The position numbers and the translations under genes are program-made. DNA of 64,000 nucleotides from Rubrivivax sp. GTDB taxonomy: Bacteria > Pseudomonadota > Gammaproteobacteria > Burkholderiales > Burkholderiaceae_C. Of the stretch, positions 33,006 to 56,333 are shown one piece after another. How positions within the stretch are numbered: position 1 is the first letter of the stretch; each line of letters opens with the position of its first letter. The stretch covers positions 40,686-104,685 of the forward strand of contig JAHCKS010000008.1 of the NCBI GenBank assembly GCA_026125665.1, in the 5' to 3' direction. The notes beneath the pieces were generated by a model that saw only the letters and a list, made by a program, of their open reading frames with translations, did no database searches and was not told the DNA's origin.

Positions 33006-33315
33006 GAGGTCGTGGCGCGCCAAGGCCGCCGGGTGATCGGCTCCGCGAATGTCCTCTTCGAGCGGCCCAGCTTCGCTGGTCCCCTCGATGCCCCCTTGAT
33101 TTCGCTGCGCCGACCACCCGGCGTCCTCGGCGTGGCACCGTGGTCTGTGTTCGACGGGGTGCCACCGCGGGTGCCGGATCGGGCCGGTGGGGTGCCCTGC
33201 GCAGCGAAATCAAGGAGGCATTCGGGGGACCTGCGGAGCTTGCGGAGCAGGGCCGCCGAAAGAGGACCTTCGCGGAGCAGGGCACCCCGCCGGCCCGATC
33301 CCGCCACGACCTGCA
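33006..33315 (+). repeat. Full-length family-A double palindromic element (A1)
   Basis: Unit 1: arm X 33006-33041, core Y 33042-33110, arm X' 33111-33138. Central motif CGTGGTCTGTGTTCGA at 33139-33154. Unit 2: arm Z (CCGGATCGGGCCGGTGGGGT, about 33174-33200), inverted core Y' 33201-33276, arm Z' ending at 33315. Both outer ends read GGTCGTGGCG when viewed inward. It lies between the alpha and beta genes of one enzyme, on a stretch that should be transcribed with them, and its motif points against their direction. Confidence 0.9.
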
Positions 33316-33326
33316 TAGGTTTCACT

Positions 33327-34580
33327 TCAGCTCACCCTCGACGCCACCGTGCCGACGTCGCGCAGCAGGTTCTCGGCCACCGGCCCGCTGCGCCGCATCG
33401 CACGCTCTCGTTCGAGCTGGCGGTTGACGATGCCCCAGTCGAGGTCCATGAAGGTCAGGGGCTGCAGCCGGTCGGCCACGGCCTCGCGCAGCGTGCGCGC
33501 GAGCGAGGCCCGGGTGATGGCCCGACCGCCGAGCCCGGCCACCACCGTGTAGCCGTGCAGGTGCAGGCCCGAGAGCGCCAGCCGCACGTCGGTCGACACC
33601 ACGCCTCCCAGCCCCACCGAGAAGCTCTTCTCGAGCACGACGACGCGCTTGGCGCCCTGCAGCGCGGCGCGCACCGCCGCCAGCGGGAAAGGCCGGAACG
33701 ACGTGATGCCGAGCACGCCGATCTTCAGGCCCGTGGCGCGCAGCTCCTCCACCGTCTCGCGCAGCGTGCCGAGCACCGAGCCGAGCGCGACGACGACGGT
33801 CTCGGCGTCTTCGCAGTGGTAGCCGCGAACGAGGCCGCCCGTGGTGCGGCCGAACCGACCGAGGAACTCCTCGGCGATCTGCGGGATGCGTTCCAGCGCC
33901 AGCTGCTGCTTCGCATGCGCGAGGTAGCGCACCTCCATGAAGGCCTCCGGCCCGACCATCGCGCCGATCGACACCGGCTCGGCCGGGTCGAGCACCTGGC
34001 GCGGCTCGTAGGGCGGCAGGAAGGCGTCGACCTCGGCCTGCGAGGGCATGTCCACGCGCTCCACCGCGTGCGTGAGGATGAAGCCGTCCATGCACACCAT
34101 CACCGGCATGCTCAGCTCCTCGCCGAGCTTGAACGCCTGGATGTGCAGGTCGAGCGCCTCCTGGTTGTGCGCCGCGAACAGCTGGATCCAGCCGCAGTCG
34201 CGCTGGCTCATCGAGTCGCTGTGGTCGTTCCAGATGTTGATCGGCGCGCCGATGGCGCGGTTGGCCACCGTCATGACGATCGGCAGGCCGAGGCCGCTGG
34301 CGTTGTAGATCGCCTCGGCCATGAAGAGCAGACCCTGGCTCGCGGTGGCCGTGTAGGCGCGTGCACCGGCGGCGCTGGCGCCGATGGCCACGCTCATCGC
34401 CGCGAACTCGCTCTCGACGTTGATGAACTCGCACGGCGTGAGCTGGCCGCTCTTCACCAGCTCCCCGAGCCCCTCGACGATGTGCGTCTGCGGCGAGATC
34501 GGATACGCGCAGACGACCTCGGGGCGCGCCAGCGCCACGGCCTGCGCGACCGCCCGCGAGCCCTCAATCTGCCTGAGCAT
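33327..34580 (-). CDS. 2-oxoacid:acceptor oxidoreductase, alpha subunit
   Basis: A 417-residue alpha subunit with the pyrimidine-binding half of the thiamine fold. AYPISPQTHIVEGLGELV near residue 27 and FINVESEFAAMSVAIGASAA are diagnostic, the Glu of VESE assisting cofactor activation. TATASQGLLFMAEAIYNASG follows, then a transketolase-C-like domain (TVVVALGSVLGTLRETVEEL, VLEKSFSVGLGG). It matches the PorA/PadG family in length. Its start lies inside the end of the gamma gene (17-base overlap). Downstream the operon is interrupted by a family-A repeat before the beta gene. Confidence 0.9.
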   Translation of the reverse strand: MLRQIEGSRAVAQAVALARPEVVCAYPISPQTHIVEGLGELVKSGQLTPCEFINVESEFAAMSVAIGASAAGARAYTATASQGLLFMAEAIYNASGLGLPIVMTVANRAIGAPINIWNDHSDSMSQRDCGWIQLFAAHNQEALDLHIQAFKLGEELSMPVMVCMDGFILTHAVERVDMPSQAEVDAFLPPYEPRQVLDPAEPVSIGAMVGPEAFMEVRYLAHAKQQLALERIPQIAEEFLGRFGRTTGGLVRGYHCEDAETVVVALGSVLGTLRETVEELRATGLKIGVLGITSFRPFPLAAVRAALQGAKRVVVLEKSFSVGLGGVVSTDVRLALSGLHLHGYTVVAGLGGRAITRASLARTLREAVADRLQPLTFMDLDWGIVNRQLERERAMRRSGPVAENLLRDVGTVASRVS

Positions 34581-35154
34581 CGGAGAGCTCCTTCATCTCG
34601 CGGCGCACGACCTCGTGCGCCTCGGTCGCCGCGGCGACGTTGGCCTCGGCCACCGGGCCGCTGAACGTGTGCCGGATGGCGTGCACCACGGCATCGAGCG
34701 TGACCAGCCCCGCCAGCGCCGCGAAGCCGCCGAGCAGCACCGCGTTGGGCACCGGCCGGCCGACGTGCTTCATCGCGATCTCGGTGGCCGGCACGGTGAT
34801 CAGCCGCTCGTGGCGGAAGCGCTTCGCCAGGTCCGCCAGGCCCAGTCCGTCGAAGGTCTTGCGGCTGTTGATGAGCACCCAGCCGTCGGGCTTCAGGCCC
34901 TGGAAGACGTCGACCTGGTGCAGCAGCGTCGGGTCCTGCACGATCAGCACGTCGGGCTCGACGATCGGTTCGCGCAGCCGGATGTCGCGCTCGTCGATGC
35001 GGCAGAAGGCCACCACCGGCGCGCCGGTGCGCTCGGAGCCGAAGCTCGGGAAGGCCTGCGCGTGGCGGCCCTGCTCGAAGGCAGCCACGGCCAGCAACTC
35101 GGCTGCCGTGACCACCCCCTGGCCACCGCGGCCGTGGATGCGAACCTGGAGCAT
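34564..35154 (-). CDS. 2-oxoacid:acceptor oxidoreductase, gamma subunit
   Basis: A 196-residue gamma subunit. MLQVRIHGRGGQGVVTAAEL at the N-terminus, then FPSFGSERTGAPVVAFCRID and PDVLIVQDPTLL are the standard motifs of the PorC/PadE family, which binds CoA and stabilises the alpha-beta core. The start at 35154 matches family N-termini; an in-frame ATG at 35193 would add 13 residues. It is first in the operon, followed with a 17-base overlap by alpha. The 232 bases upstream should hold the operon promoter. Confidence 0.9.
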   Translation of the reverse strand: MLQVRIHGRGGQGVVTAAELLAVAAFEQGRHAQAFPSFGSERTGAPVVAFCRIDERDIRLREPIVEPDVLIVQDPTLLHQVDVFQGLKPDGWVLINSRKTFDGLGLADLAKRFRHERLITVPATEIAMKHVGRPVPNAVLLGGFAALAGLVTLDAVVHAIRHTFSGPVAEANVAAATEAHEVVRREMKELSDAQAD

Positions 35155-35386
35155 CGGCGCCACCCGTTCCTCGAATCGCGGCGCGCGCAGCACGCGGCTC
35201 CGTCATGCCATCGTGTCTGCAGCACCGAAAATCGATTGTCTCGATGGCAGGAATTCTCGGACGGTGCGCGCGCGTTGGCACCGGAGGCGGGTTGATCCAG
35301 CGCAAGCCTTGCGCGATGAGCGCGCCGCGCCGCTCGGCAACGGCGTCGGCCGCCGCGCCGCGGGCGGGCCGCGCGCCGGCGCCGGC

Positions 35387-35950
35387 TCAGCCCCTCATGC
35401 GCTGCACCGCGCCGATCCAGCGTTCGAGCGCCACCATCTGGTCGCCGACGAACTTGCGCGTGCCCTCGTCGGTGCAGCGGCCCTCGGCGTCGAACTTCGT
35501 GGCGGCCATGCCGATGAAGACCTCGGGCTTCGCGAGCACCATCGCGTTCAGGTACAGCATCACCTTGCGCAGGTCGTACTGCACGCGCGCGCCGCCCAGC
35601 GGCCCGGGCGACGCGGTGAGCACGGCCACCGGCTTGCCGTTCCAGGGCTGGTCGTCGCCGCGGCTCGTCCAGTCGAGCACGTTCTTCAGGCCGCCGGGCA
35701 CGGAGAAGTTGTACTCGGGCGTGGCGATGAGCACCGCGTCGGCGCGGCGGATGCGCTCGCGCACCGCGGCCACGGCCGGCGGCAGGCCGGCGGCGAGCAC
35801 GTCGCCGTCGAACACCGGCACCTCGCGCCAGTCGTACGGGTCGAGCTGCATCGTCTTCGGCATCAGCTCGCCGGCCAGGCGCATGGCGTGGCGGTTCAGC
35901 GAAGCCTTGCGCAGGCTGCCGCACAGGCCGAGGACGTCGAGGGTGGTCAT
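35387..35950 (-). CDS. NADPH-dependent FMN reductase family protein
   Basis: A 187-residue flavodoxin-fold reductase. The phosphate-binding loop is LCGSLRKASLNR near residue 9, ATPEYNFSVPGGLKNVLDW is the typical flavin-contact and dimer segment, and SPGPLGGARVQYDLRKVM follows. It provides reduced FMN or reduces quinones or azo compounds with NADPH. Start ATG after GGAGAGCACCGA. It overlaps the previous dehydrogenase gene by ATGA and closes the ten-gene minus-strand catabolic block. A flavin-dependent monooxygenase partner is not encoded beside it. Confidence 0.92.
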   Translation of the reverse strand: MTTLDVLGLCGSLRKASLNRHAMRLAGELMPKTMQLDPYDWREVPVFDGDVLAAGLPPAVAAVRERIRRADAVLIATPEYNFSVPGGLKNVLDWTSRGDDQPWNGKPVAVLTASPGPLGGARVQYDLRKVMLYLNAMVLAKPEVFIGMAATKFDAEGRCTDEGTRKFVGDQMVALERWIGAVQRMRG

Positions 35951-36873
35951 TCGGTGCTCTCCGGTGGAAGGTCGTCGGGGGAGTGTGTCGGACGGGATGC
36001 GCGGTCGCGCGCGGTGCGGATGACGACGGCGTAGTCCTCGCCCGCCGCGCCCGCGGCGGCGGCGCGCGCCAGGGCCGCGGCCGCCACGTCGGCCACCGGC
36101 GTGGCGACACCGAGCGACATGGCGGCCATGCGGATCAGCGACACGTCCTTGCGCATCTGCTCCACGGTGAAGGTGGGGGTGTAGTCGTGCGCGCGCAGCG
36201 CCGGTGCCTTGGCCTTGACGATCGGCGAGGCGGCGGCGCTGCTCTCGACCACCTGCCACAGTGTGGGCCAGTCGAGGCCGCCACGCTCGCCGAGGGTCAA
36301 GGCCTCGGCCAGCATCGTGCTGGTGCCGACGATCAGCAGGTTCACCGCCAGCTTCGCGAAACGTGCCTCGTCGTGCGCGCCGACATACAGCTGCTGCGGG
36401 CCCCAGCAGGCGAGCAGCGGCTGCACGGCGTCGAACGCGGCGCGCGGGCCGGAGGCGAAGACGGTGAGCTGCGCCCGCTCGGCCATCACGTTGTTGCCCG
36501 AGACCGGGCAGCGCAGCGCGGCGATGCCGCGTGCCGACACGCGCTCCGCGGCCCGGCGCGAGGCCTCGGGCGACACCGTGCTCGTGTCGACCCACGTGGC
36601 GCCGGCGCGGCCACCGCCGGCAAGCTGCTCGGCCACGGCCAGCAGCGCCGCGTCGTCGGGCAGCGAGCTGAAGACGAGCGGGGCGTCGGCGAGCGCCAGC
36701 GCCACCTCGTCCGCGCCGGGGCCGACGATCGGCAGGCCGCGTTCGCGCGCCATCGCCGCGCGTTCCGGCGCCGGGTCGTGCCCGGTCACGCGGTGGCCGG
36801 CCGCGTGCAGGTGCACCGCCATCGGCAAACCCATCTTGCCCAGGCCGAGGAAGAGCAGCGTCGCCGGCGTCAC
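35947..36873 (-). CDS. NAD(P)-dependent oxidoreductase, 3-hydroxyisobutyrate dehydrogenase family
   Basis: A 308-residue beta-hydroxyacid dehydrogenase. The N-terminal Rossmann motif is LLFLGLGKMGLPMA. VDTSTVSP and CPVSGNNVMAERAQLTVFAS are the substrate-binding Ser/Gly stretch, and ARFAKLAVNLLIVGTSTMLA carries the catalytic Lys. The GTG start at 36873 gives the usual short N-terminus and follows CAGGG; a TTG at 36906 overlapping the amidohydrolase stop is the alternative. It is the second member of this family in the operon (the other at 38703-39635) and the two are clearly diverged, so they probably act on different intermediates. Confidence 0.88.
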   Translation of the reverse strand: MTPATLLFLGLGKMGLPMAVHLHAAGHRVTGHDPAPERAAMARERGLPIVGPGADEVALALADAPLVFSSLPDDAALLAVAEQLAGGGRAGATWVDTSTVSPEASRRAAERVSARGIAALRCPVSGNNVMAERAQLTVFASGPRAAFDAVQPLLACWGPQQLYVGAHDEARFAKLAVNLLIVGTSTMLAEALTLGERGGLDWPTLWQVVESSAAASPIVKAKAPALRAHDYTPTFTVEQMRKDVSLIRMAAMSLGVATPVADVAAAALARAAAAGAAGEDYAVVIRTARDRASRPTHSPDDLPPESTE

Positions 36874-36902
36874 GTCAGCCCTGAGCGATCGGCGCTCGCC
36901 GG

Positions 36903-38258
36903 TCAATGCAGCCCGAGCGCGCCGACGATCTTGCGGCCCGAGGCCTCGAGCGCCGCGAGCTGCGGCGCGAGGTCGAGCGCGACGCCCTCGCCATCCACGA
37001 GCCGGCCATGCCGCTTCTTCCAGCGCCCGGCCACCATGACGCTGTCGATGTTGGCCAGGCTCGCCTGGAACACCACCGCCGCCACCGGATCGTGCACCGG
37101 CCGCATGTTCAGCGCGCTCGCGTCGATCAGCACGAGGTCGGCCTGCTTGCCCGGTGCGAGACTGCCGATGCGATCCGACTGGCGCAGCATGCGCGCGCCC
37201 TCCACCGTCACCCAGGCCAGTGCCTCCGCAGCGGTGATCGTGCTCGTCGGCGGGATCGTGCCTTCGCGTTCGCGATGCGCCACGTTGTCCAGGCTGCGCT
37301 GGATGCCCAGCGCCACGCGCGCCTGGGTCAGCATGTCGCCCGACAGCACCGACTCGAGGTCCACGCCGAGCGACGGCGCACGGCCGAGCCTGCGCAGCCG
37401 CCCGGTGAGCGGGTGGCCGTGGCCTTGCGACATCTCGCTCTCGGCGGCGGCCGAGAAGCTCATGCCGAGCGCGCAGAAGCGCGCCAGCTCCTCGTCGGCA
37501 AGCGCATGCCCGTGCACGATGTTGACCTGCTCGCCGAGCAGCCCTTCGCGCTCCAGCAACTGCCAGCCGCCCGGCGTGCGCGCCGGGCCGCCGCCCTGGT
37601 GCAGCGAGGCGATGACGCCGAGCTCACGCGCCATCGCGAAGTCGTGCCGCGCCACTTCCAGCGTCGAGTAGTGCGGCCCCAGCACCGCGGCGTGCACGCT
37701 CAGCAGCGCGCGCCCCTGGTGCGCCTTCAGCAGCCGCTCGACCTCGGCGCGCGGATGCGGCTTTTCCCAGAACGGCGTCTCGCCGGGCTTCGGGTCGGGC
37801 TTGGGCGTGCCGTGGAAGAAGGCGGCGCGGATGCCGCTTTCGAGCAGCGCGGCCACCGCCGCGTCGTTGTGCGCAGGCGTGCGGTTGTTGTGGCACCAGT
37901 CCACCAGCGTCGTCGTGCCGCAGTTGAGCTGGTTCAGCGCACCCACCAGCGTGGCGATGTGCAGGTCTTCCGGAGTGAACGCCGTCGCCAGCCCGGCGTG
38001 CATCTTGCGGAAGTACTCCGGCAGCGTCCAGTTCGCCGCCACGCCGCGCAGCGCCGTCTGCCACGTGTGCATGTGCGCGTTGACGAGGCCGGGGATGACG
38101 ATGTGGCCGGTGGCGTCGATCCTTTCGACGTCGTCGGCGGCGATCGACGGAGCGATCGCGGTGATCGCGTCACCGATGACGAGGATGTCGGCGTTCGGCA
38201 GCACGCCTTGCCGGTCCATCGTGATGACGGTGGCGCCCTGGATCAGCGTGCGGGTCAT
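36903..38258 (-). CDS. Amidohydrolase-family deaminase/hydrolase
   Basis: A 451-residue metal-dependent hydrolase of the TRZ/ATZ/8-oxoguanine-deaminase group. Metal ligands are visible as the HxH of GLVNAHMHTWQTALRG (H62, H64), the later His of VIASLHQGGG and IVHGHALADEE, and the Asp of SLGVDLESVLSGD. The C-terminal composite domain ends with SLAPGKQADLVLID, typical of cytosolic amidohydrolases. These enzymes usually remove ammonia or an amine from a heterocycle. Placed in a block with ring-cleavage and CoA-dependent genes, it may start or continue breakdown of an N-containing ring. Start MTRTLIQG follows the family-A repeat by about 28 bases. Confidence 0.9.
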   Translation of the reverse strand: MTRTLIQGATVITMDRQGVLPNADILVIGDAITAIAPSIAADDVERIDATGHIVIPGLVNAHMHTWQTALRGVAANWTLPEYFRKMHAGLATAFTPEDLHIATLVGALNQLNCGTTTLVDWCHNNRTPAHNDAAVAALLESGIRAAFFHGTPKPDPKPGETPFWEKPHPRAEVERLLKAHQGRALLSVHAAVLGPHYSTLEVARHDFAMARELGVIASLHQGGGPARTPGGWQLLEREGLLGEQVNIVHGHALADEELARFCALGMSFSAAAESEMSQGHGHPLTGRLRRLGRAPSLGVDLESVLSGDMLTQARVALGIQRSLDNVAHREREGTIPPTSTITAAEALAWVTVEGARMLRQSDRIGSLAPGKQADLVLIDASALNMRPVHDPVAAVVFQASLANIDSVMVAGRWKKRHGRLVDGEGVALDLAPQLAALEASGRKIVGALGLH

Positions 38259-38286
38259 GGTTGCGCGCCGTGTAGTCCGCCCGGCC

Positions 38287-38662
38287 AGGTCGTGGCGCAC
38301 CAAGGCCGCCGGGTGGTCGGCTCCGCGAATGTCTTCTTCGAGCGGCCCAGCTTCGCTGGTCCCCTCGATGCCCCCTTGATTTCGCTGCGCCGACCACCCG
38401 GCGTCCTTGGCGTGGCACCGTGGTCTGTCTTCGATCGGAGGCCACTGCGGTTGCCGGATCGGGACGGCGGGGTGCCCTGCGCAGCGAAATCAAGGGGGCA
38501 TTGGGCGGACCAGCGCAGCTGGGCCGCCCAAAGAGGACATTCGCGGGCGAGCCCGGACACGAACAGTCCAGTGGACTGTTCGTGCCTGGCGAGCGGCCGG
38601 GCGCTTGCGACCGGCGCGGCCTGCAAGGCCAGGGCACCCCGCCGGCCCGATCCCGCCACAAC
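38287..38662 (+). repeat. Full-length family-A double palindromic element with an inserted hairpin (A2)
   Basis: Arm X 38287-38321, core Y 38322-38390, arm X' 38391-38418, motif CGTGGTCTGTCTTCGA 38419-38434, arm Z 38454-38480, inverted core Y' 38481-38547, then an extra 83-base stretch, and arm Z' 38631-38662. Y and Y' pair at about 59 of 66 positions. The element fills the gap between two co-directional catabolic genes and runs opposite to them. Confidence 0.9.
38558..38584. repeat. 27-base perfect palindrome inside element A2
   Basis: CACGAACAGTCC and GGACTGTTCGTG are exact inverses around a 3-base centre (AGT). The hairpin occurs only in this copy of the family-A repeats, within the 83-base stretch not found in A1 or A3. 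No T-run follows on either side, so it is not a standard intrinsic terminator. Confidence 0.85.
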
Positions 38663-38702
38663 CGGCCGAGGCACAACCAGCCGCGGCAGCACCGGCCGCA
38701 TC

Positions 38703-39635
38703 TCAGCCCCCCAGCCCATCGTCCACCTTCACGTTCTCGGGCTTGAGCTCAAGCCCCGCGTCGGCAGCGATCTCGCGCAGCAGGATCGCGAAGTCCACGT
38801 CGTCGTGCCCACGGCCCACCAGCCGCGCCACGCTCTCGCGCGTGGCCGCCGCGGCCGGCATCGGCACGCCGAGCGCCTTGCCCGCGGAAAGGCCGAGATC
38901 CATGTCCTTCAGCAGCAGCTTCGGCGTGAAGGTCACCTGCTCGAACGTGAGGTTCGTCAGCACCGGCGACTTGTAGCGCGTGTACATGCTGCCGAGCACC
39001 GAATCGTTGATGCTTTCCAGGAACACGTGGCGCGGGATGCCGGCCTTCTCGGCGAGCACGGTGATCTCGCAGAGGCTCTGGATGATCACGCCGAACATCG
39101 TGTTGTGCGCGATCTTCCACACGCGCGCGAGCTCGCCTTCGCCCACCCACATCGCCCGGCGCCCGATCGCTGCCAGCAGCGGCGCCGCACGCTCGTACTG
39201 CGAGCGCGGGCCCGAGGCGACGATCAGCAGCTTGCCCGCCTTCGCCACCTTGGCGTTGCCCGACACCGGCGCGCACAGGTACGCGATGCCCTGTGCCTCC
39301 AGCCGCTGGCGAATCTCGGCCGAGCCTTCCTGCGAGATCGACGAGCTGTCGACGATCAGCGCCGGCTTGCGCACGCCGGTGACGAGGCCCTGCTCGTCGA
39401 AGAGCACCTCCTTCAGGTCGTCGGTGGTGCTGACCATCGTGAAGACGATGTCGCAGCCGGCGAGGTCGAGCTTCTGGTCGACGATGGTCGCGCCGTGGTC
39501 GGCGAGCGGCAGCGCCTTGGCGCGCGTGCGGTTCCACACCTTCACGCCGTGGCCCGCGGCCGTCAGGCGCTTCACCATCGCCTCGCCCATGCGGCCGAGG
39601 CCGATCCAGCCGATGTCCGGTGATGTGTCGCTCAT
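38703..39635 (-). CDS. NAD(P)-dependent oxidoreductase, 3-hydroxyisobutyrate dehydrogenase family
   Basis: A 310-residue beta-hydroxyacid dehydrogenase. DIGWIGLGRMGEAMVKRL is the coenzyme-binding N-terminus, VDSSSISQEGSAEIR and CAPVSGNAKVAKAGKLLIVA form the substrate loop, and WKIAHNTMFGVIIQSLCEIT includes the catalytic Lys position followed by the Asn of the family. Its start overlaps the CoA transferase stop by ATGA. It likely oxidises or reduces a hydroxyacid or its semialdehyde formed in the same pathway. It is followed by the family-A repeat and then the amidohydrolase gene. Confidence 0.9.
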   Translation of the reverse strand: MSDTSPDIGWIGLGRMGEAMVKRLTAAGHGVKVWNRTRAKALPLADHGATIVDQKLDLAGCDIVFTMVSTTDDLKEVLFDEQGLVTGVRKPALIVDSSSISQEGSAEIRQRLEAQGIAYLCAPVSGNAKVAKAGKLLIVASGPRSQYERAAPLLAAIGRRAMWVGEGELARVWKIAHNTMFGVIIQSLCEITVLAEKAGIPRHVFLESINDSVLGSMYTRYKSPVLTNLTFEQVTFTPKLLLKDMDLGLSAGKALGVPMPAAAATRESVARLVGRGHDDVDFAILLREIAADAGLELKPENVKVDDGLGG

Positions 39636-40792
39636 GATTCCCTCGGCGCCCACAGCGAGCGCCCGGCGCGCAGCGCCTCGTCGTGGTCGCCGAGCAGCGG
39701 CGGCGCCGTCACGTCGAGCGCGCGTTCGCCGTCGAAGCTGACCGGCGAGCGCACCGTGCGCCAGCGCTCGCCCGGCTTGCCCGGGTGCGGCGCGTCGACG
39801 AACAGCTGCAGGTGCTTCGCCTGCGGGTCCTCGGGCACCTCGTTGGTGTCGTACATCGGCGCGTGCGGCACGTCCAGCGCCTCGAGCCGGCGGCACCACT
39901 CGGCGCGCGGCTGCCGCGCGAAGTAGCCGCCGAGCACGCCGATCAGCACCTCCTGGTGCTCGATGCGCGCCTCGCGCGTGGCGAAGCGCGGGTCGTCGAA
40001 GAGGTCGGGCTTCTCGATCGCCTTCGCGAGCCCCTCCCAGAACTTCGGCGGGCTGCTCATGTGCAGCGCGATCCACCGGCCGTCGGCGCACCTCAGCACG
40101 TAGCTCTGCGAGACGCTCGGCCGGCTGTACGGCCCCATCACCTCGCCTTCGCTGAAGAGGTGCGTGAACGCGTCGAGGTTGAAGTGCGTCATGGCCTCGA
40201 ACATCGAGACTTCCACCCGGCGCCCCTTCGTGCCCTTTGTGCGCTCGCGTTCGTACAACGCACCGAGGATGCCGTACGCAGCGTAGAAGCCGGTCAGCGC
40301 GTCGGCGAGCGCGGGCCCCACGACCCGCGGGTTCGCCGGATTGACCAGCAGCTTGAGGAAGCCGCTGGCCGCCTGCGCCACGCTGTCGTAGCTCGGCCGC
40401 ATCGCCGCGGGCCCGTCTCGGCCGAAGCCGCTGATGGCGCAGTAGATCAGCTTCGGGTTCAGCTCGCGCAGCCGCGCCTCGCCGGCGCCGATCTTCTCGG
40501 CCACGCCGGGGCGGAAGTTCTGGATGTAGACGTCGGCCTCGGCGACGAGCCGCTCGAAGAGCTTCAGGTCGGCGGCCTGGCGCGTGTCGAGCCGCACGCT
40601 CTTCTTGTTGCGGTTGTAGGTCTGGTAGTGCGGGCTGTAGGTGCCGCCGCGGAAAGCGCGGAACGGGTCGCCTTCGGGCTGCTCGACCTTCACCACGTCG
40701 GCGCCGAGGTCGGCGAGCAGCATCGACGCCGCCGGCCCGGTGATGAAGGTGCCGTGCTCGAGCACGCGCACGCCGGCGAGTACCTTGGCCAT
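39632..40792 (-). CDS. CaiB/BaiF (class III) CoA transferase
   Basis: A 386-residue family III CoA transferase. LAGVRVLEHGTFITGPAASM and LADLGADVVKVEQPEGDPFR are the N-terminal signature. The NRNKKSVRLD segment binds the CoA phosphate. The ISGFGRDGPAAMRPSYDSVA to GALADA-type region contains the Asp region that carries the acyl anhydride. It moves CoA between an acyl-CoA and a free organic acid. It is sandwiched between a citrate-synthase-like gene (19 bases upstream) and a dehydrogenase gene (4-base overlap), so it may activate the acid that the lyase then cleaves. Confidence 0.92.
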   Translation of the reverse strand: MAKVLAGVRVLEHGTFITGPAASMLLADLGADVVKVEQPEGDPFRAFRGGTYSPHYQTYNRNKKSVRLDTRQAADLKLFERLVAEADVYIQNFRPGVAEKIGAGEARLRELNPKLIYCAISGFGRDGPAAMRPSYDSVAQAASGFLKLLVNPANPRVVGPALADALTGFYAAYGILGALYERERTKGTKGRRVEVSMFEAMTHFNLDAFTHLFSEGEVMGPYSRPSVSQSYVLRCADGRWIALHMSSPPKFWEGLAKAIEKPDLFDDPRFATREARIEHQEVLIGVLGGYFARQPRAEWCRRLEALDVPHAPMYDTNEVPEDPQAKHLQLFVDAPHPGKPGERWRTVRSPVSFDGERALDVTAPPLLGDHDEALRAGRSLWAPRES

Positions 40793-40811
40793 CGCGGTCT
40801 TCGTCCGGTTC

Positions 40812-44981: not shown

Positions 44982-45532
44982 TCGTGGCGGCTCAGGCGTG
45001 GGTGGGCAAGCCGCTGCCGCACAGCTGCGGCGGTCGGGCCCCGGGGGGCCCGACTCCCCTGCGCTGCTCGAACTCTTGGCCCACGCGCAGAACTCGTTGC
45101 ACTCGCTTCGCTCGTGCCACTCGGACAGCTGCGCGAGTCAGAAGTGGATGCGCGCGAGTACGCGCGCGGGCCAAGAGTCCTGCGCTGCTCGGCACCGCAG
45201 ATGCGCGGCAGCGGCTTGCCCACCCGCGCCTGAGCGGCACCGCTCGTTGTGCTCGTTGAAGACAGCCCACGTTGCCGCAAGGTCGTGGGCCCGAAGGGTG
45301 GCGGCGCATTCAGGAGCGGGCGCCGAGCAGCGCAGGGCTTGTGGCCCGCGGGCGTACTCGCCCGCTTCCACATCTGACTCGCGCGGCTGTTCGAGTGGCA
45401 CGAGCGAAGCGAGTGCAACGAGTTCCGCGCGTGGGCCACAAGACCGAGCAGCGCAGGGCAGTTCCGAGCGCCAGCGAGGAACCGCCGCGACGCGCCGCCG
45501 CCCTTCGGGCCCGCTGCCTTGCCGCCACGACC
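44982..45532 (-). repeat. Family-C double palindromic element (C1)
   Basis: Unit 1: arms P 44992-45030 and P' 45195-45233 pair at 36 of 39 positions around a core at 45057-45192. Unit 2: arms Q 45277-45307 and Q' 45492-45522 pair at 27 of 31 around the same core inverted (45323-45458). Each core is bounded by direct copies of CCTGCGCTGCTCG or its inverse, and contains inner arms CTCTTGGCCCACGCGC / GCGCGCGGGCCAAGAG. The spacer reads TCGTTGAAGACAGCCCACG (45253-45271), the reverse complement of a family-A-like motif. Outer ends show GGTCGTGGCGG (44981) and, inverted, GAGGTCGTGGCGGC. No gene is visible within the 610-base gap. Confidence 0.9.
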
Positions 45533-48497: not shown

Positions 48498-49697
<1,200 letters not shown>

Positions 49698-49698
49698 A

Positions 49699-50751
49699 TC
49701 ACTTCTTCGGTTCGCTCTTGGCCGCGTAGCGCTTGTTCCATTCGGCCAGGATGCGCTCGCGGTGCGTCGCCTCCCAGTAGAAGTCCTTCTTCACGAGGCG
49801 GCTCTCGTAGTCCTTGGGCACGTTGGGCAGCGGCGCGGCCACGCCCGGCTGCGCGGTGATGGCGAAGTTCTTGCCGTACAGCAGCATCGCGTCCTTGCTG
49901 CTCGCCCAGTCGGCGAGCTTCTTCGCCGCGGCGAGGTTCTTCGTGCCCTTGTGGATGCCGAAGGCCTCGAGGTCCCAGCCCAGGCCCTCCTTCGGGAACA
50001 CGAGGTCGATCGGCGCGCCCTTGGCCTTGTTGCTGTTGGCGCGGTACTCGAAGCTGATGCCGACGACGAACTCGCCCGCGGCGGCCATGTTGCACGGGCG
50101 CGAGCCGCTGTGCGTGTACTGCGCGATGTTCTCGTGCAGCGCGTCCATGAACTTCCAGCCGCCGCCCTTGCCCGCATCGTCGCCGAACAGCGTGAGCCAG
50201 GCGGTGACGTCGAAGAAGCCGGTGCCCGAGCTCGCCGGGTTGGGCATCACGACCTGCCCCTTGTACGCGGGCTTCGTGAGGTCGCGCCAGCTCTCGGGCT
50301 TCGGGATGTTCTTCTTCTTCGCCTCGACGGTGTTGAAGCAGACGGTGGCCCCCCACACGTCCATGCCGAACCAGGCCGGCGGGTTCTTCTTGTCGCGGTA
50401 CTGCGAAAGCAGCGCGTCGAGGTTCAGCGGCGCGTAGGGCTCGAGCATGCCCTGCTGGTCCATCAGTGCCAGGCTCGACGCGGCCACGCCCATCACGACG
50501 TCGGCCTGCGGGTTGCCCTTCTCGGCCAGCAGCTTGGCGGTGATGACGCCGGTGCTGTCGCGCACCCACTTGATGTCGATGTCCGGGTGGGCCCGGTTGA
50601 AGCCTTCCTGGTAGGCCTTCAGCTGGTCGGTCTCGAGCGCGGTGTAGACGAGCAGCGTCGTCTTCTGCGCGAAGGCCGCGCCGGCCAGCGCCAGCGAGGC
50701 GAAGGCGGCAAGCACGGTGCGACGAAGGGCTTGGCGGGCGACGGGGCGCAT
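49699..50751 (-). CDS. phnS: Phosphonate (2-aminoethylphosphonate-type) ABC importer substrate-binding protein
   Basis: A 350-residue periplasmic receptor with signal peptide (MRPVARQALRRTVLAAFASL..., cleavage near AFA, residue 28). LLVYTALETDQLKAYQEGF begins the mature iron/phosphonate-type binding fold. MPNPASSGTGFFDVTAWL is the ligand-binding helix start, and VVGISFEYRANSNKAKGAPI forms the second lobe. The ATG follows AGGAGGAGAACC. First gene of the importer operon. It diverges from the GntR regulator gene across 297 bases that hold a promoter and an operator-like palindrome. Its assignment rests on the linked phnW and phnA. Confidence 0.9.
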   Translation of the reverse strand: MRPVARQALRRTVLAAFASLALAGAAFAQKTTLLVYTALETDQLKAYQEGFNRAHPDIDIKWVRDSTGVITAKLLAEKGNPQADVVMGVAASSLALMDQQGMLEPYAPLNLDALLSQYRDKKNPPAWFGMDVWGATVCFNTVEAKKKNIPKPESWRDLTKPAYKGQVVMPNPASSGTGFFDVTAWLTLFGDDAGKGGGWKFMDALHENIAQYTHSGSRPCNMAAAGEFVVGISFEYRANSNKAKGAPIDLVFPKEGLGWDLEAFGIHKGTKNLAAAKKLADWASSKDAMLLYGKNFAITAQPGVAAPLPNVPKDYESRLVKKDFYWEATHRERILAEWNKRYAAKSEPKK

Positions 50752-50928
50752 GGTTCTCCTCCTGGCAGGGCCGCAGCGGCGGGATGGGGACGAGCGAACG
50801 AACGAGACTACAAGCGTGGGAGAGTCGCCTGCATGCATGACAACCCGATGTCTCGCTGGTGCGGGCGCCGCACGCGAACGGCGCCATCCGCACCGGCCGC
50901 GCCCGGCGACGGTGCGGCGCTTTGCAGA

Positions 50929-50945
50929 TTGTTGACAATCGACAA
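50929..50945. promoter_or_regulatory. Operator-like palindrome over the GntR-phnA promoter
   Basis: TTGTTGACAATCGACAA has inverted half-sites (TTGTnGA / TCnACAA). The size and form are those of GntR/FadR-type operators. It overlaps the -35 box of the + strand promoter, so the adjacent regulator probably represses its own operon. Binding is inferred, not shown. Confidence 0.6.
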
Positions 50946-50960
50946 TGCCCAGCCTACGAT
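50932..50960 (+). promoter_or_regulatory. Sigma-70 promoter for the regulator-phnA-MATE operon
   Basis: A perfect -35 (TTGACA, 50932-50937) and a near-consensus -10 (TACGAT, 50955-50960) are exactly 17 bases apart. They are 89 bases upstream of the regulator's ATG in a region that is otherwise very GC-rich, which makes the match stand out. Confidence 0.75.
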
Positions 50961-51048
50961 GCCCGCGGCAGGCCCGCCACGGTGAAGACCCCGATGCCGG
51001 CGCGGCCCGGCCCCCGCCGACCCGCCTGCCCATCTCCCGCCCCGTGCC

Positions 51049-51861
51049 ATGCCGCGCCTGCCCTTGCCCGAACGGCCCACCCGGGCCGATCGACCGGAGC
51101 CACCGGACCGGCCCGAACGCATCGCCGAGCGGCCGGCGCGCGGGCGCGCCGCGCCACCCGACAGCGCCGCCGCCATCGAGCTGCTGCGCGACAACTCGCT
51201 CGTCACGCTGGCCCAGCGCGAGCTCGAACGGCGCATTGTCGGCGGCGAGATCCCGGCCGGCACCAAGCTCAACGAGGTCGAGGTCGCGGCCAGCTTCGGC
51301 GTCAGCCGCGGCCCGGTGCGCGAGGCCTTTCGCGCGCTCGGCCAGATGGGCCTCGTGCGCGTCGAGAAGAACCGCGGCGTCTTCGTGCGCGAGGTCTCGC
51401 TCGAGGAGGCGAACGAGTTCTACGAGGTGCGCGCCGCGCTCGAGGGGCTGATCGGGCGCCTCGCGGCCCGGCGCGCCGACGCCGCCGAGCTCGACGCGCT
51501 GCGCGGCGTCGTCAAGCGCATGCAGGCCGTGCCGAAGGCCCGCCGCGCCGAGGCCTACTTCGCGCTGAACGTCGAGTTCCACGACGGGCTCGCGCGGGCC
51601 GCACGCAACCAGGCGCTGCTCGCCAACTACCGCGGCGTCGTCAACCAGCTCGACCTCTACCGCCGCGCCACCCTGTCGCGCAGCAGCGAACACATCCCGC
51701 AATCCACCGCCGAGCACGAAGCCATCGTCGAAGCCGTGGCCGCGCGCGACGAGGCCCGCGCCGAGCGCCTGCTGGTGCAACATGTGCTCGGCAGCCGTGC
51801 ACGGCTGCAGCAGGCGCTGGCCGGCCCGGCCGCCCCGGCGAACCCGAGATCAGAACGATGA
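51049..51861 (+). CDS. GntR-family (FCD) regulator of phosphonate use
   Basis: A 270-residue FadR-type regulator. Residues 1-45 are a Pro/Arg-rich extension without a clear fold. The winged HTH spans about 48-120 (LAQRELERRIVGGEIPAGTK, GVSRGPVREAFRALGQMGLV, EKNRGVFVRE). The FCD domain covers about 123-250 (EFYEVRAALEGLIGRLAARR, LNVEFHDGLARAARN, TAEHEAIVEAVAARDEARAE). Its stop overlaps the phnA start (ATGA). Position between the two arms of the cluster and the operator-like palindrome suggest control of both by a phosphonate or phosphonoacetate. The same family is linked to such clusters in other Burkholderiales. Confidence 0.9.
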   Translation: MPRLPLPERPTRADRPEPPDRPERIAERPARGRAAPPDSAAAIELLRDNSLVTLAQRELERRIVGGEIPAGTKLNEVEVAASFGVSRGPVREAFRALGQMGLVRVEKNRGVFVREVSLEEANEFYEVRAALEGLIGRLAARRADAAELDALRGVVKRMQAVPKARRAEAYFALNVEFHDGLARAARNQALLANYRGVVNQLDLYRRATLSRSSEHIPQSTAEHEAIVEAVAARDEARAERLLVQHVLGSRARLQQALAGPAAPANPRSER

Positions 51862-53120
51862 GCCCCTCCACGCGCGCCGCCGTCACCGTCAACGGCACGA
51901 GCTACCGCTGGCCGCTGCGCCCGGTGGTCGTGGTCTGCATCGACGGCGGCGACCCGCGCTACCTGCAGCGCTACCTGGCCGAAGGCCGCATCCCGCACAT
52001 CGCGCGTTTCGTGCGCGAAGGCTTCGCCGGTGTCGCCGACGGCTCGATGCCGTCGTTCACCTGCCCGAACAACATGTCGATCATCACCGGCACGCCGACG
52101 GCGCGGCACGGCATCTCGGGCAACTTCTACCTCGACACGCGCACCTGGGAACCGGTGGTGATGACCGGGCCCGAGCTGCTGCGCGGCGACACGATCCTCG
52201 CGCGCTTCGCCGCGGCCGGCGCCAAGGTGGTGTCGATCACCGCCAAGGACAAGCTGCGCCGCCAGCTCGGCAAGGGCCTGGACGTGAGCCAGGGGCACGT
52301 GTCGCTGTCCAGCGAACACGCCGGCCGCTGCACGCTGGCCGAGAACGGCATCGAGAACGTGCTCGAGTACGTGGGCATGGCGCAGCCGGACATGTACTCG
52401 ATGGAGCTGTCGCTGCTCGTGCTGGAGGCGGGGCTGAAGCTGCTGGCCGACCGCCGGCCCGATCTGCTGTACCTCTCGCTGACCGACTGGGTGCAGCACA
52501 AGTGGGCGCCCGAGGAAGCCGACGCGCTGAAGTTCTACGAGAAGCTCGACGACGCCTTCGGCCGCCTGGCGGCGCACGACATCACGCTCGCGCTCACCGC
52601 CGACCACGGCATGAGCGACAAGAGCAACGCGGCCGGCGAGCCCAACGTCATCTGGCTGCAGGACATCCTCGACGCGCGCTTCGGCGCCGGCGAGACGACC
52701 GTCATCTGCCCGATCACCGACGCCTTCGTCGGCCACCACGGTGCGCTCGGCGGCTTCGTGCGCGTGTGGTCGCGAGGTCGTGTCACGGCGCGGCAGATCA
52801 TCGACGCCATCGCCGGCATCGATGGCATCGAGCTGGCGCTGGACCGCGAGACGGCGGCGCGCCTGTTCGAGATGCCGGCCGACCGCGAAGGTGACGTCGC
52901 CGTCATCGCGCGCGAGCACCATTGCATCGGCAGCTCGGCGAGGAACCACGACCTCGCGGGCCTGGCCGGCCACCGCCTGCGCACGCACGGCGGCCTCAGC
53001 GAGGCCAAGGTGCCGATGATCTTCAGCCGGCCGCTGAACGACGCCTACAAGGCGCGCGCCGCGGCGGTGCCGCTGAAGAGCTGGCAGATCTTCGACTACG
53101 CCATCAACGGGACGGTGTGA
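51858..53120 (+). CDS. phnA: Phosphonoacetate hydrolase
   Basis: A 420-residue alkaline-phosphatase-superfamily enzyme that splits phosphonoacetate into acetate and phosphate using two zinc ions. The metal Asp is D29 (VCIDGGDPRYL). The nucleophile is probably T68 (MPSFTCPNNMSIITG). The second metal set is in LTDWVQHKW and TADHGMSDKS, and a late His occurs in LRTHGGLSEAKVPM. Length and motifs match known PhnA proteins. It is translationally coupled to the regulator before it and to the MATE gene after it. With PhnW, it defines the aminoethylphosphonate-to-acetate route, although the intermediate dehydrogenase is missing locally. Confidence 0.93.
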   Translation: MSPSTRAAVTVNGTSYRWPLRPVVVVCIDGGDPRYLQRYLAEGRIPHIARFVREGFAGVADGSMPSFTCPNNMSIITGTPTARHGISGNFYLDTRTWEPVVMTGPELLRGDTILARFAAAGAKVVSITAKDKLRRQLGKGLDVSQGHVSLSSEHAGRCTLAENGIENVLEYVGMAQPDMYSMELSLLVLEAGLKLLADRRPDLLYLSLTDWVQHKWAPEEADALKFYEKLDDAFGRLAAHDITLALTADHGMSDKSNAAGEPNVIWLQDILDARFGAGETTVICPITDAFVGHHGALGGFVRVWSRGRVTARQIIDAIAGIDGIELALDRETAARLFEMPADREGDVAVIAREHHCIGSSARNHDLAGLAGHRLRTHGGLSEAKVPMIFSRPLNDAYKARAAAVPLKSWQIFDYAINGTV

Positions 53121-54535
53121 GCGGCGGCCGGCCGGCGGCCGCCGGCCTCGAGAACCCGCTGCTGCACGGCCCGGTGCTGCCGACGCTGCTGCGCCTGGCC
53201 GCGCCGAACGTGACGGCGATGCTGCTGACGGTGGCGGTGGGCATCGCCGAGACCTGGTACATCGGCCGGCTGGGCACCACGCCGCTGGCGGCGATGGCGC
53301 TGGTGTTCCCGTTCGCCATGCTGACGCAGATGCTGTCGGCCGGCGCGATGGGCGGCGGCGTCAGCTCGGCCATCGCGCGTGCGCTCGGCGCCGGCGACAC
53401 GGCGCGCGCGCGCACGCTGGCGATGCACGCGCTGGCCATCGGCGCCGGCGCCGGCGTGCTCTACAGCGTGCTGCTGCTGGTGCTCGGGCCGCTCCTGTAC
53501 CGCACGCTCGGCGGCCGCGGCGACGTGCTCGCCGAGGCGGTGCGCTACGCCGCCGTGCTCTTCGGCGGCGCGCTGCTCGTGTGGCTGATGAACACGCTCG
53601 CTTCGGTGCTGCGAGGCACCGGCAACATGCGCGTGCCCTCGCTCGGCATCGCCGGCGCGGCGGTGCTGCAGATCGTGCTCGGCGGCGTGCTCGGGCTCGG
53701 CGCCGGGCCGGTGCCATCGCTGGGCATGGCCGGTGTCGCGCTCGGCCACCTCGCGGCGATGGCCGCCGGTACCGCCTTCTTCGCCTGGGTGCTGACGCGC
53801 CCCGGCGGCCGCCTGCCGCTGGACCTGCACGCCGCGGCCTGGCGCGCACTGGCCTGGCAGCGCGAGATGTTCCGCGACATCCTGCGGGTCGGCGCGCTCG
53901 CCTGCCTGTCGCCGCTGCAGTCGGTGCTGACGGCGGTGATCTTCACCGGCCTCGTCGCGCGGCTCGGCCTGGCGCCGCTGGCCGGCTACGGCATCGGCCA
54001 GCGGCTGGAGTTCCTGCTCGTGCCGATCGCCTTCGGCATCGGCGTCGCGTCGGTGCCGATGGTCGGCATGGCCATCGGCGCCGGCGACGTGGCGCGCGCG
54101 CGGCGCGTCGCCTGGGTGGCCGGCGCGGTGAGCACGGGCGGGCTCGCGGTGATCGGCGGCGTGGTGGCCATCGCGCCGGACCTCTGGGCCGCGCTCTTCA
54201 CGGGCGAGGAGACCGTGCTCGCCAGCGCCCGCAGCTACCTGCGCATCGTCGGGCCGGCTTTCCCGCTGTTCGGGCTCGGTCTGACGCTGTACTTCGCGGC
54301 GCAGGGTGCGGGCGCCGTGCTCGGGCCGGTGCTCGCGGGCACGGCGCGCCTGGCGGTGGTCCTGCTCGGCGGCGCGTGGCTGCTGGCCGGCGTGCCGAGC
54401 ATCCAGGGGCTGTTCGCGCTCGCCGCGGGGGGCATGGCGGTCTACGGCGTGGCCACCCTGCTCGCCGTGCGCGCCACGCCCTGGGGCGCCCCGGCAGGCG
54501 GCTCGCCTGCCACGCCGCGATCGCGGCCGTCCTGA
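53117..54535 (+). CDS. MATE-family multidrug/toxin efflux transporter
   Basis: A 472-residue membrane protein with about 12 helices in two homologous halves. PLLHGPVLPTLLRLAAPNVT and VAVGIAETWYIGRLGTTPLA are the first-half signature; SPLQSVLTAVIFTGLVARLG and EFLLVPIAFGIGVASVPMVG represent the second. It exports cationic or other compounds using H+ or Na+. The GTG start overlaps the phnA stop by GTGA, so it is part of the phosphonate operon. This is unusual, since no MATE transporter is part of known aminoethylphosphonate systems. It may export a toxic intermediate or be an unrelated passenger. Confidence 0.88.
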   Translation: MSGGRPAAAGLENPLLHGPVLPTLLRLAAPNVTAMLLTVAVGIAETWYIGRLGTTPLAAMALVFPFAMLTQMLSAGAMGGGVSSAIARALGAGDTARARTLAMHALAIGAGAGVLYSVLLLVLGPLLYRTLGGRGDVLAEAVRYAAVLFGGALLVWLMNTLASVLRGTGNMRVPSLGIAGAAVLQIVLGGVLGLGAGPVPSLGMAGVALGHLAAMAAGTAFFAWVLTRPGGRLPLDLHAAAWRALAWQREMFRDILRVGALACLSPLQSVLTAVIFTGLVARLGLAPLAGYGIGQRLEFLLVPIAFGIGVASVPMVGMAIGAGDVARARRVAWVAGAVSTGGLAVIGGVVAIAPDLWAALFTGEETVLASARSYLRIVGPAFPLFGLGLTLYFAAQGAGAVLGPVLAGTARLAVVLLGGAWLLAGVPSIQGLFALAAGGMAVYGVATLLAVRATPWGAPAGGSPATPRSRPS

Positions 54536-54935
54536 GCCCTCGTGCGGCGCGGGGCGGAGGGCCGGGCCGCACGCGACGGCGACGCTGTCGAAGATCGTGC
54601 TGGCCAGTCGCCGGAGGGCGCATCGGCCGCTGGGCGCGCGAAGCCACGAAGGCCAGGCGCGACGGCGGCTTGGTGTTGCGGAGCCGACGCGCCTCCCGCT
54701 GCCCCATGGGGCGGCGGTGCGCGGCGCGCCCATGCCTGGGCCGTGCGTGGCACCGCACGCGGCCCGGTCCTGGGCACGCACCACGCCGCGGGCACGCAGC
54801 GCGGCCCGGGTGGCGGGCTGCCTTGCCCGCCGGCGCGCAGTTGGCCATCATCGGGGGCAGGGGGGGCACACGTGCCTGGGACCGAGCGGCTCGACAGGCG
54901 CATCCGCCCCTCGTCCTGCGCGCCGGAGACCGCCG
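54536..54935. other. 400-base gap without a supported gene
   Basis: No reading frame here has a plausible start with domain support, and the region is extremely GC-rich. It contains one inverted repeat around GGGCCGTGCG / CGCACGCGGCCC (about 54737-54765) that may act as a terminator for the phnA-MATE operon, although no T-run follows. No family A, B or C module was recognised. Confidence 0.6.
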
Positions 54936-55361
54936 ATGCTCTACCACGTCATCTACTCCTCCCGGGCCACGCCGCCGCTGACGGTGGAGCAGCTGCAGGA
55001 GATCCTCGAGGACGCGCGCGCCGGCAACGAGAAGCGCGACGTGACCGGGGCGCTGCTGTACATCGACGGGGTCTTCATGCAGGTCCTCGAGGGCGAGAAG
55101 GACACGGTGGTGGCGCTGATGGCGCGCATCACCGCGGACACGCGGCACGAGGACGTGCGCGTGTACCACGAGGGGGCCGTCGACCACCGCGTCTTCGGCT
55201 CGTGGCGCATGGCCTACGCCGACGGCACGCCGGCGCAGCTGTCGGCCTGGGCGGGGCTGCCGGGCACCACGACCCTCGACGCCATCCTCGCCGAGCTGGG
55301 CCGCGACACGACGCGTGCCTCGGCGGTCGCCCGGGGCATCCTGGGCGCCATCGCAGGTTGA
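54936..55361 (+). CDS. BLUF-domain blue-light photoreceptor
   Basis: A 141-residue protein that is almost wholly a BLUF domain (residues 1-95), which binds FAD and senses blue light. The photocycle residues are all present at AppA-equivalent spacing: Y7 (HVIYSSRA), N31 (NEKRDVTG), Q49 (FMQVLEG), W90 and M92 (GSWRMAY), each exactly 14 less than in AppA. About 45 C-terminal residues form the capping helices. It is a short BLUF with no output domain, so it signals through protein contacts. Its stop overlaps the start of a Coq4-like gene. Confidence 0.92.
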   Translation: MLYHVIYSSRATPPLTVEQLQEILEDARAGNEKRDVTGALLYIDGVFMQVLEGEKDTVVALMARITADTRHEDVRVYHEGAVDHRVFGSWRMAYADGTPAQLSAWAGLPGTTTLDAILAELGRDTTRASAVARGILGAIAG

Positions 55362-55873
55362 ACGAGCCGGGCCAGCCGATCGAGCCCGCCTTGGCCGCGC
55401 GCCCGCACGCCTTCGAGCTCGCCGGCAGCACGCAGACGCTGCACGAGGGGCTGGCGGAGTACTTCGCCGCCAACCCGCAGCTCAAGCGCGACGCGAACCT
55501 GTTGTCCGCCGAGGCGCGGCAGTTCTTCCGCTCGCACGACGCGGTGCACGTGCTGTACGGCTGCGGCACGTCGATGGTCGACGAGGCCGTCGTGAAGCTC
55601 GCCAGCCTGTTCGGCACCACCGGCGGGCTGCAGGTGCTGCGCGGCTACGCGCATGTCGAGACGCTCGACATCTACACGCGGCTGCCGCTGGCCGGCACGC
55701 TGCGCGCGCTGCTGATGGCGCCCTGGCTCATCGTGCGCACGGCATGGCATTGCGCCCGCCAGCCACGGCGTTGGCCGTGGGTGGGTCACGAGGAGTTCAT
55801 GAACGTGCCCCTGGCCGAGCTGCGGGCCCGCTTCGGCATCCGCGTGGCGCACGGGCACCGCAGCGCGCGCTGA
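55358..55873 (+). CDS. Coq4-family protein
   Basis: A 171-residue protein with the Coq4 metal motif HDxxH-x11-E: H60, D61, H64 and E76 in SHDAVHVLYGCGTSMVDEAV. The remaining sequence is helical (LHEGLAEYFAANPQLKRD, ALLMAPWLIVRTAWHCARQP). Coq4 takes part in ubiquinone biosynthesis in mitochondria and some alphaproteobacteria (C1 oxidative decarboxylation of the ring), or scaffolds the synthesis complex. The start is taken as TTG at 55358, overlapping the BLUF stop; no ATG lies upstream in a sensible place. The tight coupling to a photoreceptor suggests a common role, which is not described for Coq4 to my knowledge. Confidence 0.8.
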   Translation: MNEPGQPIEPALAARPHAFELAGSTQTLHEGLAEYFAANPQLKRDANLLSAEARQFFRSHDAVHVLYGCGTSMVDEAVVKLASLFGTTGGLQVLRGYAHVETLDIYTRLPLAGTLRALLMAPWLIVRTAWHCARQPRRWPWVGHEEFMNVPLAELRARFGIRVAHGHRSAR

Positions 55874-56003
55874 CGGCGCAGCAGGATCCTGCCAGGCCCG
55901 TGATCGGGAAGCCACCTGCAGCACCGGCAGCGTCTTCGGCGCGCAGGCGCGCTTCGGGCTCGAGGGCTTCCATGCTCACGGGATGCCGCTTCGCACTCAG
56001 ACC

Positions 56004-56333
56004 GGTGGTGGCGGGATCGGGACGGTGGGGCGCCCTGCTCCGTGAATGTCCTCTTCTGGCGGCCCAGCTTCGCTGGTCCCCCAGATGCCCCCTTGGTTTC
56101 ACTGCGCAGGGCGCCCCACCGTCCCGATCCGGCACCCGCAGTGCCACCACCTCGAAGACAGACCACGGTGCCACGCCAAGGACGCCGGGTGGTCGGCGCA
56201 GCGAAATCAAGGGGGCATTGGGGGGACCAGCGAAGCTGGGCCGCCCAAAGAGGACATTCGCGGAGCCGACCGCCCGGCGTCCTTGGCGCGCCACGACCTC
56301 GACCCCACGGCGGCCTTGGCGCGCCACGACCTC
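56004..56333 (-). repeat. Full-length family-A element in inverse orientation (A3)
   Basis: Read on the + strand: arm Z 56004-56038, core Y 56039-56107, arm Z' 56108-56132, the inverse motif TCGAAGACAGACCACG (56152-56167), arm X 56169-56197, inverted core 56198-56264, arm X' 56265-56300, then a second, partial X' (56301-56333). This is the exact reverse of the order in A1 and A2, so all three share one plan. It occupies most of the 542-base gap between the Coq4-like and DUF502 genes, opposite in direction to both. Confidence 0.9.

What the first reader, a model, noticed from the sequence alone, without database searches (positions are those of the whole stretch)
33006..56333. Long palindromic repeats with a common two-hairpin plan fill the intergenic gaps
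Three sequence families (A at 33006, 38287, 56004, short copies at 24631 and 11149; B at 24231 and 63943; C at 44982) share one architecture although their arms and cores differ. Each has two units; each unit is a core enclosed by inverted arms of roughly 25-39 bases; and, clearly in A and C, the same core occurs in both units in opposite orientation, with different arms. In A the order X-Y-X' / Z-Y'-Z' is conserved in three full copies, one of them inverted. This is more elaborate than REP, BIME or ERIC repeats. It suggests a mobile or regulatory element class with an ordered internal structure, not random palindromes.
Basis: seen in the sequence. Interest (0 to 1): 0.82.

Follow-up and report, generated by a model that had tools for sequence, protein, structure and literature searches.

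The report
Paired hairpin repeats across Burkholderiales
Many bacteria of one large group carry a roughly 300-base DNA repeat made of two mirror-image hairpins whose stems change freely as long as they still pair, while a short core stays fixed, so something appears to recognise the folded shape, and what copies it around is unknown.

Summary
Family A is a dispersed ~296-bp repeat with at least 40 places in its own genome, 0 of 40 between divergent genes. It is two ~110-nt hairpin units in opposite orientation around a ~40-bp linker.

In 67 copies the pairs inside each unit covary (310 double changes, 79 in shuffles); pairs joining the units do so far less (114, 71). At two sites orthologs lack a ~375-bp insert lying exactly between neighbouring stop and start codons.

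A model of the unit matched 53 of 150 family genomes (51 of 141 genera); a second, 13 of 300 order genomes in 3 families and two Variovorax replicons. The core is invariant; the arms keep pairing, not sequence (95.2% of cells, 66.0% shuffled).

Best reading: REPIN-like non-autonomous mobile DNA recognised through its fold. Y1 transposase was not found in 3 of 6 carriers, so the mobiliser is unknown. An RNA role at gene ends is the main rival. B and C share the plan, not the model. The ~90-bp repeat BRE may be the same unit; its sequence could not be compared.

The parts
33007..33311 (+). Family A element, full copy
   Evidence: alignment of 38 of 40 own copies, sharp ends; 40 places in the genome
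33016..33133 (+). A unit 1 (outer arm - core - inner arm)
   Evidence: model R2, 88 bits, E 3.1e-15
33176..33302 (-). A unit 2, same core inverted, different arms
   Evidence: model R2, 92.9 bits, E 3.4e-16
32950..33006 (-). Leader of operon-type copies: Shine-Dalgarno-like GGAGC shortly before the ATG of the downstream gene (31906-32949, minus strand)
   Evidence: 48-bp leader found beside 10 own A copies; not in the 9 empty sites
33312..33326 (.). Right edge shared by operon-type copies, up to the stop codon of gene 33327-34580 (minus strand)
   Evidence: end consensus of 12 copies
38287..38664 (+). Family A element with an extra palindrome inside the stem of unit 2
   Evidence: unit 1 at 38296-38413, weak unit 2 at 38456-38566 (29.9 bits)
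56004..56299 (-). Family A element, full copy, inverted
   Evidence: units 56013-56130 (+) and 56173-56290 (-)
24631..24785 (+). Deletion derivative of A: outer ends only
   Evidence: not significant with R2 (E 0.52)
11182..11250 (+). Remnant of A (linker and start of unit 2)
24238..24597 (+). Family B element: two units with different arms
   Evidence: inverted repeats; alignment of 7 own copies, one of them degenerate in unit 2; further matches in the genome
63935..64000 (+). Family B copy cut by the window end
44987..45488 (+). Family C element: two units, core repeated inverted
   Evidence: inverted repeats; further full and partial copies in the genome

Best explanation
Family A is a REPIN-like, non-autonomous mobile DNA element. 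Two copies of a ~110-nt unit sit in opposite orientation around a short linker. Each unit folds into a long hairpin: freely variable outer stem, an invariant two-sided internal loop (CTCCGCnnATGTCCyCC ... CTCCyCCTTnAnTTCGCTGC), and a variable inner stem-loop. Inferred mechanism: a nuclease, transposase or recombinase supplied in trans recognises the invariant loop inside the folded single strand, for instance on the lagging strand or on an extruded cruciform, and copies the doublet into new places. Insertions survive where they harm least: beyond gene 3' ends and between stop and start codons in operons, where one subset also brings a ribosome-binding leader. Shown: dispersal, architecture, covariation, empty sites, wide range. 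Inferred: mobilisation by an enzyme that reads the fold. Not found: the enzyme.
For: 40 own-genome places and more in three other genomes of the genus: G009 and G012 and G055. Empty sites: 9 of 9 fetched relatives with the gene pair of window 33006 lack A; in 7 of 9 the unaligned gap between the flanks is 1-20 bp. An own copy (L028) is a ~375-bp insert exactly between start and stop codons relative to one G012 ortholog; L029 and L035 also have orthologs without A. Pairs within units covary in 67 copies gathered by sequence similarity: 310 double changes against 79 in shuffles, 0/500; pairs joining the units give 22 covarying pairs against 23.7, 414/500 shuffles as high. Family-wide: 95.2% of cells paired against 66.0% shuffled, 21 of 23 pairs covarying. 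Inverted order: 21 of 21 neighbouring pairs among the 95 rows. At four gene slots filled in two or more species, the elements are no closer to each other than the own copy is to the median own-genome copy, and one slot (L036/L111) holds opposite orientations, as expected of turnover.
Against: No transposition was seen and no consistent target-site duplication was found. For L028, L029 and L035 only one ortholog each was compared, so loss is not excluded there. The Y1 transposase family, the REP mobiliser, is not found in G000, G012 (99% complete) or G055, though G009, G043 and G041 have matches. Of 20 loci, 9 show a single unit (one of them at a contig end) and 2 of 11 doublets have the opposite order. 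The covariation score of the joining pairs, although far lower, still exceeds its shuffles (0.101 against 0.081). Invariant sequence could equally be read by an RNA-binding protein.
Confidence: 0.5

Rival explanations
1. RNA-level element: the units act in transcripts as 3'-end or intercistronic structures (protecting, processing or tuning mRNA), recognised by an RNA-binding protein or nuclease at the invariant internal loop; spread is secondary.
For: 0 of 40 own copies lie between divergent genes; convergent pairs are 15 of 40 against 25 of 161 background pairs (rough, since the background uses the same loci and a stricter gene set); operon copies carry a Shine-Dalgarno-like leader; structure is conserved while arm sequence is not.
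Against: An inverted doublet puts opposite strands of the same core in one transcript, odd for an RNA device; carriers are scattered (53 of 150 genomes) and slots are empty in some relatives; 0 of 40 divergent is only mildly unexpected (P 0.016 to 0.077 by background). No match to an Rfam family at the gathering score in the window, and only chance-level ones in three other loci.
Confidence: 0.25
2. Arms stay paired through template switching between arms during replication (quasi-palindrome correction) and copies are homogenised by gene conversion; no recognition of the fold is needed.
For: It would produce double changes without selection; same-slot copies are not closer than random copies.
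Against: Correction should also keep the stems of the two units matched to each other and remove the internal loop; instead the two units' stems drift apart within the genus and the unpaired core keeps its sequence across genera.
Confidence: 0.12
3. The unit is the already named ~90-bp Betaproteobacterial repeat element BRE, seen here in more genomes and as a doublet.
For: BRE is 75-91 bp in Bordetella, GC 69%, mainly intergenic, reported also in Polaromonas, Delftia, Acidovorax and others (PMC3110155, section 14); taxa overlap.
Against: BRE is described as tandem, VNTR-like, with no or few bases between repeats and counted at over 70% identity; the word 'inverted' does not occur in the main text. 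Here units are mostly inverted, usually 40-156 bp apart, with arms of free sequence. The BRE sequence is only in a figure and additional files that were not held or not opened.
Confidence: 0.13

Closest known systems
REPIN (REP doublet forming hairpin) and BIME
   Same: Two inverted palindromic units with a spacer, dispersed, intergenic, compensatory changes in the hairpin (PMC3116915, abstract and section 10 part 1)
   Different: Units are ~110 nt, not the 20-40 bp given for REPs; the invariant part is an internal loop inside the stem; pairs within each unit covary, those joining the units far less; no Y1 transposase found in three of six carriers
CGTC-tagged REPs
   Same: No dedicated transposase known, mostly inverted dimers, located between co-directional and convergent genes (PMC3733652, abstract, passages, section 15)
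   Different: Stems of 8-9 bp with a terminal tag; here 21 outer-stem pairs and no conserved terminal tag (weak CGTC-like bases after the end of some copies)
BRE, Betaproteobacterial repeat element
   Same: Size class, GC, intergenic, overlapping taxa (PMC3110155)
   Different: Tandem VNTR arrangement; sequence not available for comparison
MITEs (general kind; recalled)
   Same: Short, non-coding, multi-copy, inverted ends, empty sites
   Different: No consistent target duplication and no parent transposase found

Membership tests
REP/REPIN (RAYT-mobilised) | short 20-40 bp palindromic unit | tested here: not met
   unit matches 93-132 nt long
REP/REPIN (RAYT-mobilised) | inverted doublet with spacer | tested here: met
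   21 of 21 neighbouring pairs '+-' rows; 11 of 20 loci with a doublet, 9 '+-' and 2 '-+'
REP/REPIN (RAYT-mobilised) | Y1 tyrosine transposase in the genome | tested here: not met
   no match in G000, G012, G055; matches in G009, G043, G041; not tested in other carriers
REP/REPIN (RAYT-mobilised) | GTAG tag at the foot of the hairpin | tested here: not met
   no conserved GTAG in end consensus or unit alignments
REP/REPIN (RAYT-mobilised) | 3'-end and convergent location | tested here: met
   own genome: 15 convergent, 25 co-directional, 0 divergent of 40; elsewhere 7, 10, 1 of 18 loci examined out of 20; gene calls are my own script
CGTC REP | CGTC tag, 8-9 bp stem, CCA tail | tested here: not met
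   21 outer-stem pairs; CGTC-like bases only in some right flanks
BRE | sequence identity to the published repeat | not testable with these tools
   sequence only in Figure 6 and additional files of PMC3110155
BRE | tandem array with few bases between repeats | tested here: inconclusive
   neighbouring units are inverted, 40-156 bp apart; two doublets in a row in one genome, G138
MITE | terminal inverted repeats | tested here: inconclusive
   imperfect GGTCGTGGC / GCCACnACC ends
MITE | target-site duplication | tested here: inconclusive
   no consistent duplication in empty/filled comparisons
Known Rfam RNA family | match at the gathering score | tested here: not met
   0 matches in the window; in L251, L256, L249 three matches up to E 1, all far below gathering scores

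The most novel reading that the evidence does not exclude
A previously unrecognised, order-wide class of mobile DNA whose identity is its fold: an invariant two-strand internal loop held between stems of free sequence, tending to inverted doublets, moved by an enzyme outside the Y1/RAYT family that reads folded single strands.
Probability: 0.35. Interest if true: 0.82.

Novelty: new variant of a known kind. Interest (0 to 1): 0.64.

Why it matters
It gives Burkholderiales a structural repeat class with very strong covariation that a covariance model can find across many genera. The missing mobiliser becomes a concrete search: which enzyme binds this loop. Because some of these elements sit at operon junctions with a ribosome-binding leader, they also bear on how tightly packed operons tolerate insertions.

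Tried and rejected
Long hairpin joining both units as the main conserved structure: not supported; 22 covarying pairs against 23.7 in shuffles, although double-change cells (114 against 71) and the covariation score (0.101 against 0.081) still exceed shuffles. RAYT mobilisation: not supported in 3 of 6 carriers tested. Autonomous parent: the one widely spaced doublet among 20 loci (L313, 649 bp apart) encloses open frames that look chromosomal, judged by eye only; the one gene found inside an A element is an IS110 insert, not a parent. Plasmid or phage carriage: the A element has no match in plasmids and its arm pattern none in viral contigs; a far relative (L251) matches three Variovorax replicons and no phage record; one viral-contig match to the core lies near a contig end. 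A conserved arm mismatch as a recognition feature: rejected, it varies between copies. tblastx of flanks: uninformative in GC-rich DNA. Exact empty site for the convergent copy L037: not obtained, gene order differs.

Literature: no description of this doublet found (open-licence papers only); led to BRE. Papers seen: PMC3733652 (abstract, passages, section 15), PMC3116915 (abstract, section 10 part 1), PMC3110155 (abstract, passages, section 14), PMC1525189 (abstract); others only as search listings.

Caveats: gene calls are my own hexamer script; low-score calls overlap some copies, and two of the 18 loci have distant or overlapping calls. L306 and L313 were left out of that context count. 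Rows typed into one search were a hand-picked adjacent subset (18 '+-', 2 '-+', the latter between neighbouring doublets), so only their order counts. One search hits were chosen by a structural model, which favours paired arms; others (copies chosen by sequence; 9 of 9 sequence-only core matches have arms pairing at 15 or more of 20, against 42 of 2000 random placements, but in loci already chosen by the model) answer that in part. Dropped: 2 of 40 own copies, too short; copies under 75% identity or not spanning the element; three of those 70 (L035, L038, L156) were left out of the 67-row alignment.
Full report
Observation. A begins AGGTCGTGG and ends GCCACNACC, ~296 bp, with sharp loss of alignment outside (38 of 40 own copies aligned). 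The 38287 copy carries an extra palindrome in unit 2. Unit 1 and the reverse complement of unit 2 align throughout: same core, different arms.

Copies and neighbours. The own genome has 40 places, with 40 of 158 first-look candidates scored. Many more lie in same-genus genomes G009 and G012, and G055 gave 13 matches with 7 candidates scored. In the relatives search 10 of 41 genomes matched: three with many long copies, seven only short or weak. Of 40 own copies, 15 lie between convergent genes, 25 between co-directional and 0 between divergent genes. The convergent excess against 25 of 161 background pairs has P 0.0035; zero divergent has P 0.016 to 0.077 depending on the background. These backgrounds come from the same loci and are rough.

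Empty sites. At window 33006, nine of the 31 genomes searched hold the same two genes and were fetched; none has A. In seven the unaligned gap is 1-20 bp, and in two other palindromes of 81 and 102 bp occupy the slot. L028 against its G012 ortholog is a ~375-bp insert exactly between the start codon of one gene and the stop codon of the other; L029 and L035 also have orthologs without A. Ten operon copies share a 48-bp leader with a Shine-Dalgarno-like stretch shortly before the start codon. That leader also occurs beside other palindromes or without A. At four slots filled in two or more species, elements are no more alike than the own copy and the median own-genome copy, and at one (L036/L111) they lie in opposite orientation.

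Structure. In 67 copies from several genomes, pairs within units are kept in 94.5% of cells (90.1% shuffled), with 310 double changes (79 shuffled; 0/500). Pairs joining the units: 91.3% (89.9%), 114 double changes (71), 22 covarying pairs (23.7; 414/500 shuffles as high), covariation score 0.101 (0.081). A 53-unit alignment gives 20 of 28 covarying pairs.

Range. Model R1 matched 53 of 150 genomes of the family, own genome included, in 51 of 141 genera. Fetched units show the invariant core CTCCGCnnATGTCCyCC / CTCCyCCTTnAnTTCGCTGC with widely differing arms that still pair. On 37 units, 95.2% of cells pair (66.0% shuffled), with covariation score 0.729 (0.177). Model R2 matched 13 of 300 genomes of the order, own genome included, in families f1, f13 and f21. 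Of neighbouring units in those rows, 21 of 21 are '+-'. In 20 larger loci, 9 have '+-', 2 '-+' and 9 a single unit. Two fetched Variovorax replicons carry the doublet. The fetched B and C loci and four other loci with junction palindromes do not match R2, so these look like separate families with a similar plan.

Mobiliser. Y1_Tnp is not found in G000, G012 and G055; G009, G043 and G041 have matches. In G012 an IS110-family transposase gene (PF01548, PF02371) sits inside the A core; two contig ends show the same split and suggest a second copy. IS elements that use REPs as targets are known (PMC1525189, abstract), so A behaves like a REP in this respect.

Judgement. The architecture, covariation, range and presence/absence at junctions are shown. 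That a protein reads the folded unit and moves it is inference. REPIN membership fails on unit size, tag and, in three carriers, transposase, though the element works like a REPIN in its doublet plan and location. BRE identity is open.

Noticed in passing
L226:544-1674 (+), L227 and L228 contig ends: IS110-family transposase gene inserted in the A core of G012, splitting it at GTGTCCT|CTCTTTCGG with CT shared; two contig ends show the same split. Bridge-RNA targeting of this repeat core is a natural guess.
   Followed up: partly
L058, L062, L210, L198: Other palindromic repeats occupy gene junctions in relatives (81 and 102 bp in L058 and L062); in L198 and L210 they sit beside the same or a similar ribosome-binding leader.
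   Followed up: partly
window 32950-32997; L063, L064, L065: A 48-bp leader with a small hairpin and GGAGC before the start codon recurs upstream of different genes, also in genomes where A was not found.
   Followed up: partly
L038 and L049 left flanks; window 56300 left flank: The terminal AGGTCGTGGCGCGC-like stretch is repeated just outside some copies.
   Followed up: no
L313:4570-5410: Two units 649 bp apart enclose open frames that look chromosomal, like a composite element.
   Followed up: partly
unit core, reverse strand: The core reads AAGGAGG and, on the other strand, CCTCCTTTA, resembling Shine-Dalgarno and anti-Shine-Dalgarno sequence (resemblance recalled, not tested).
   Followed up: no
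L262:5467-5573: One viral contig ends in an A-type unit; possibly host DNA at its edge.
   Followed up: no
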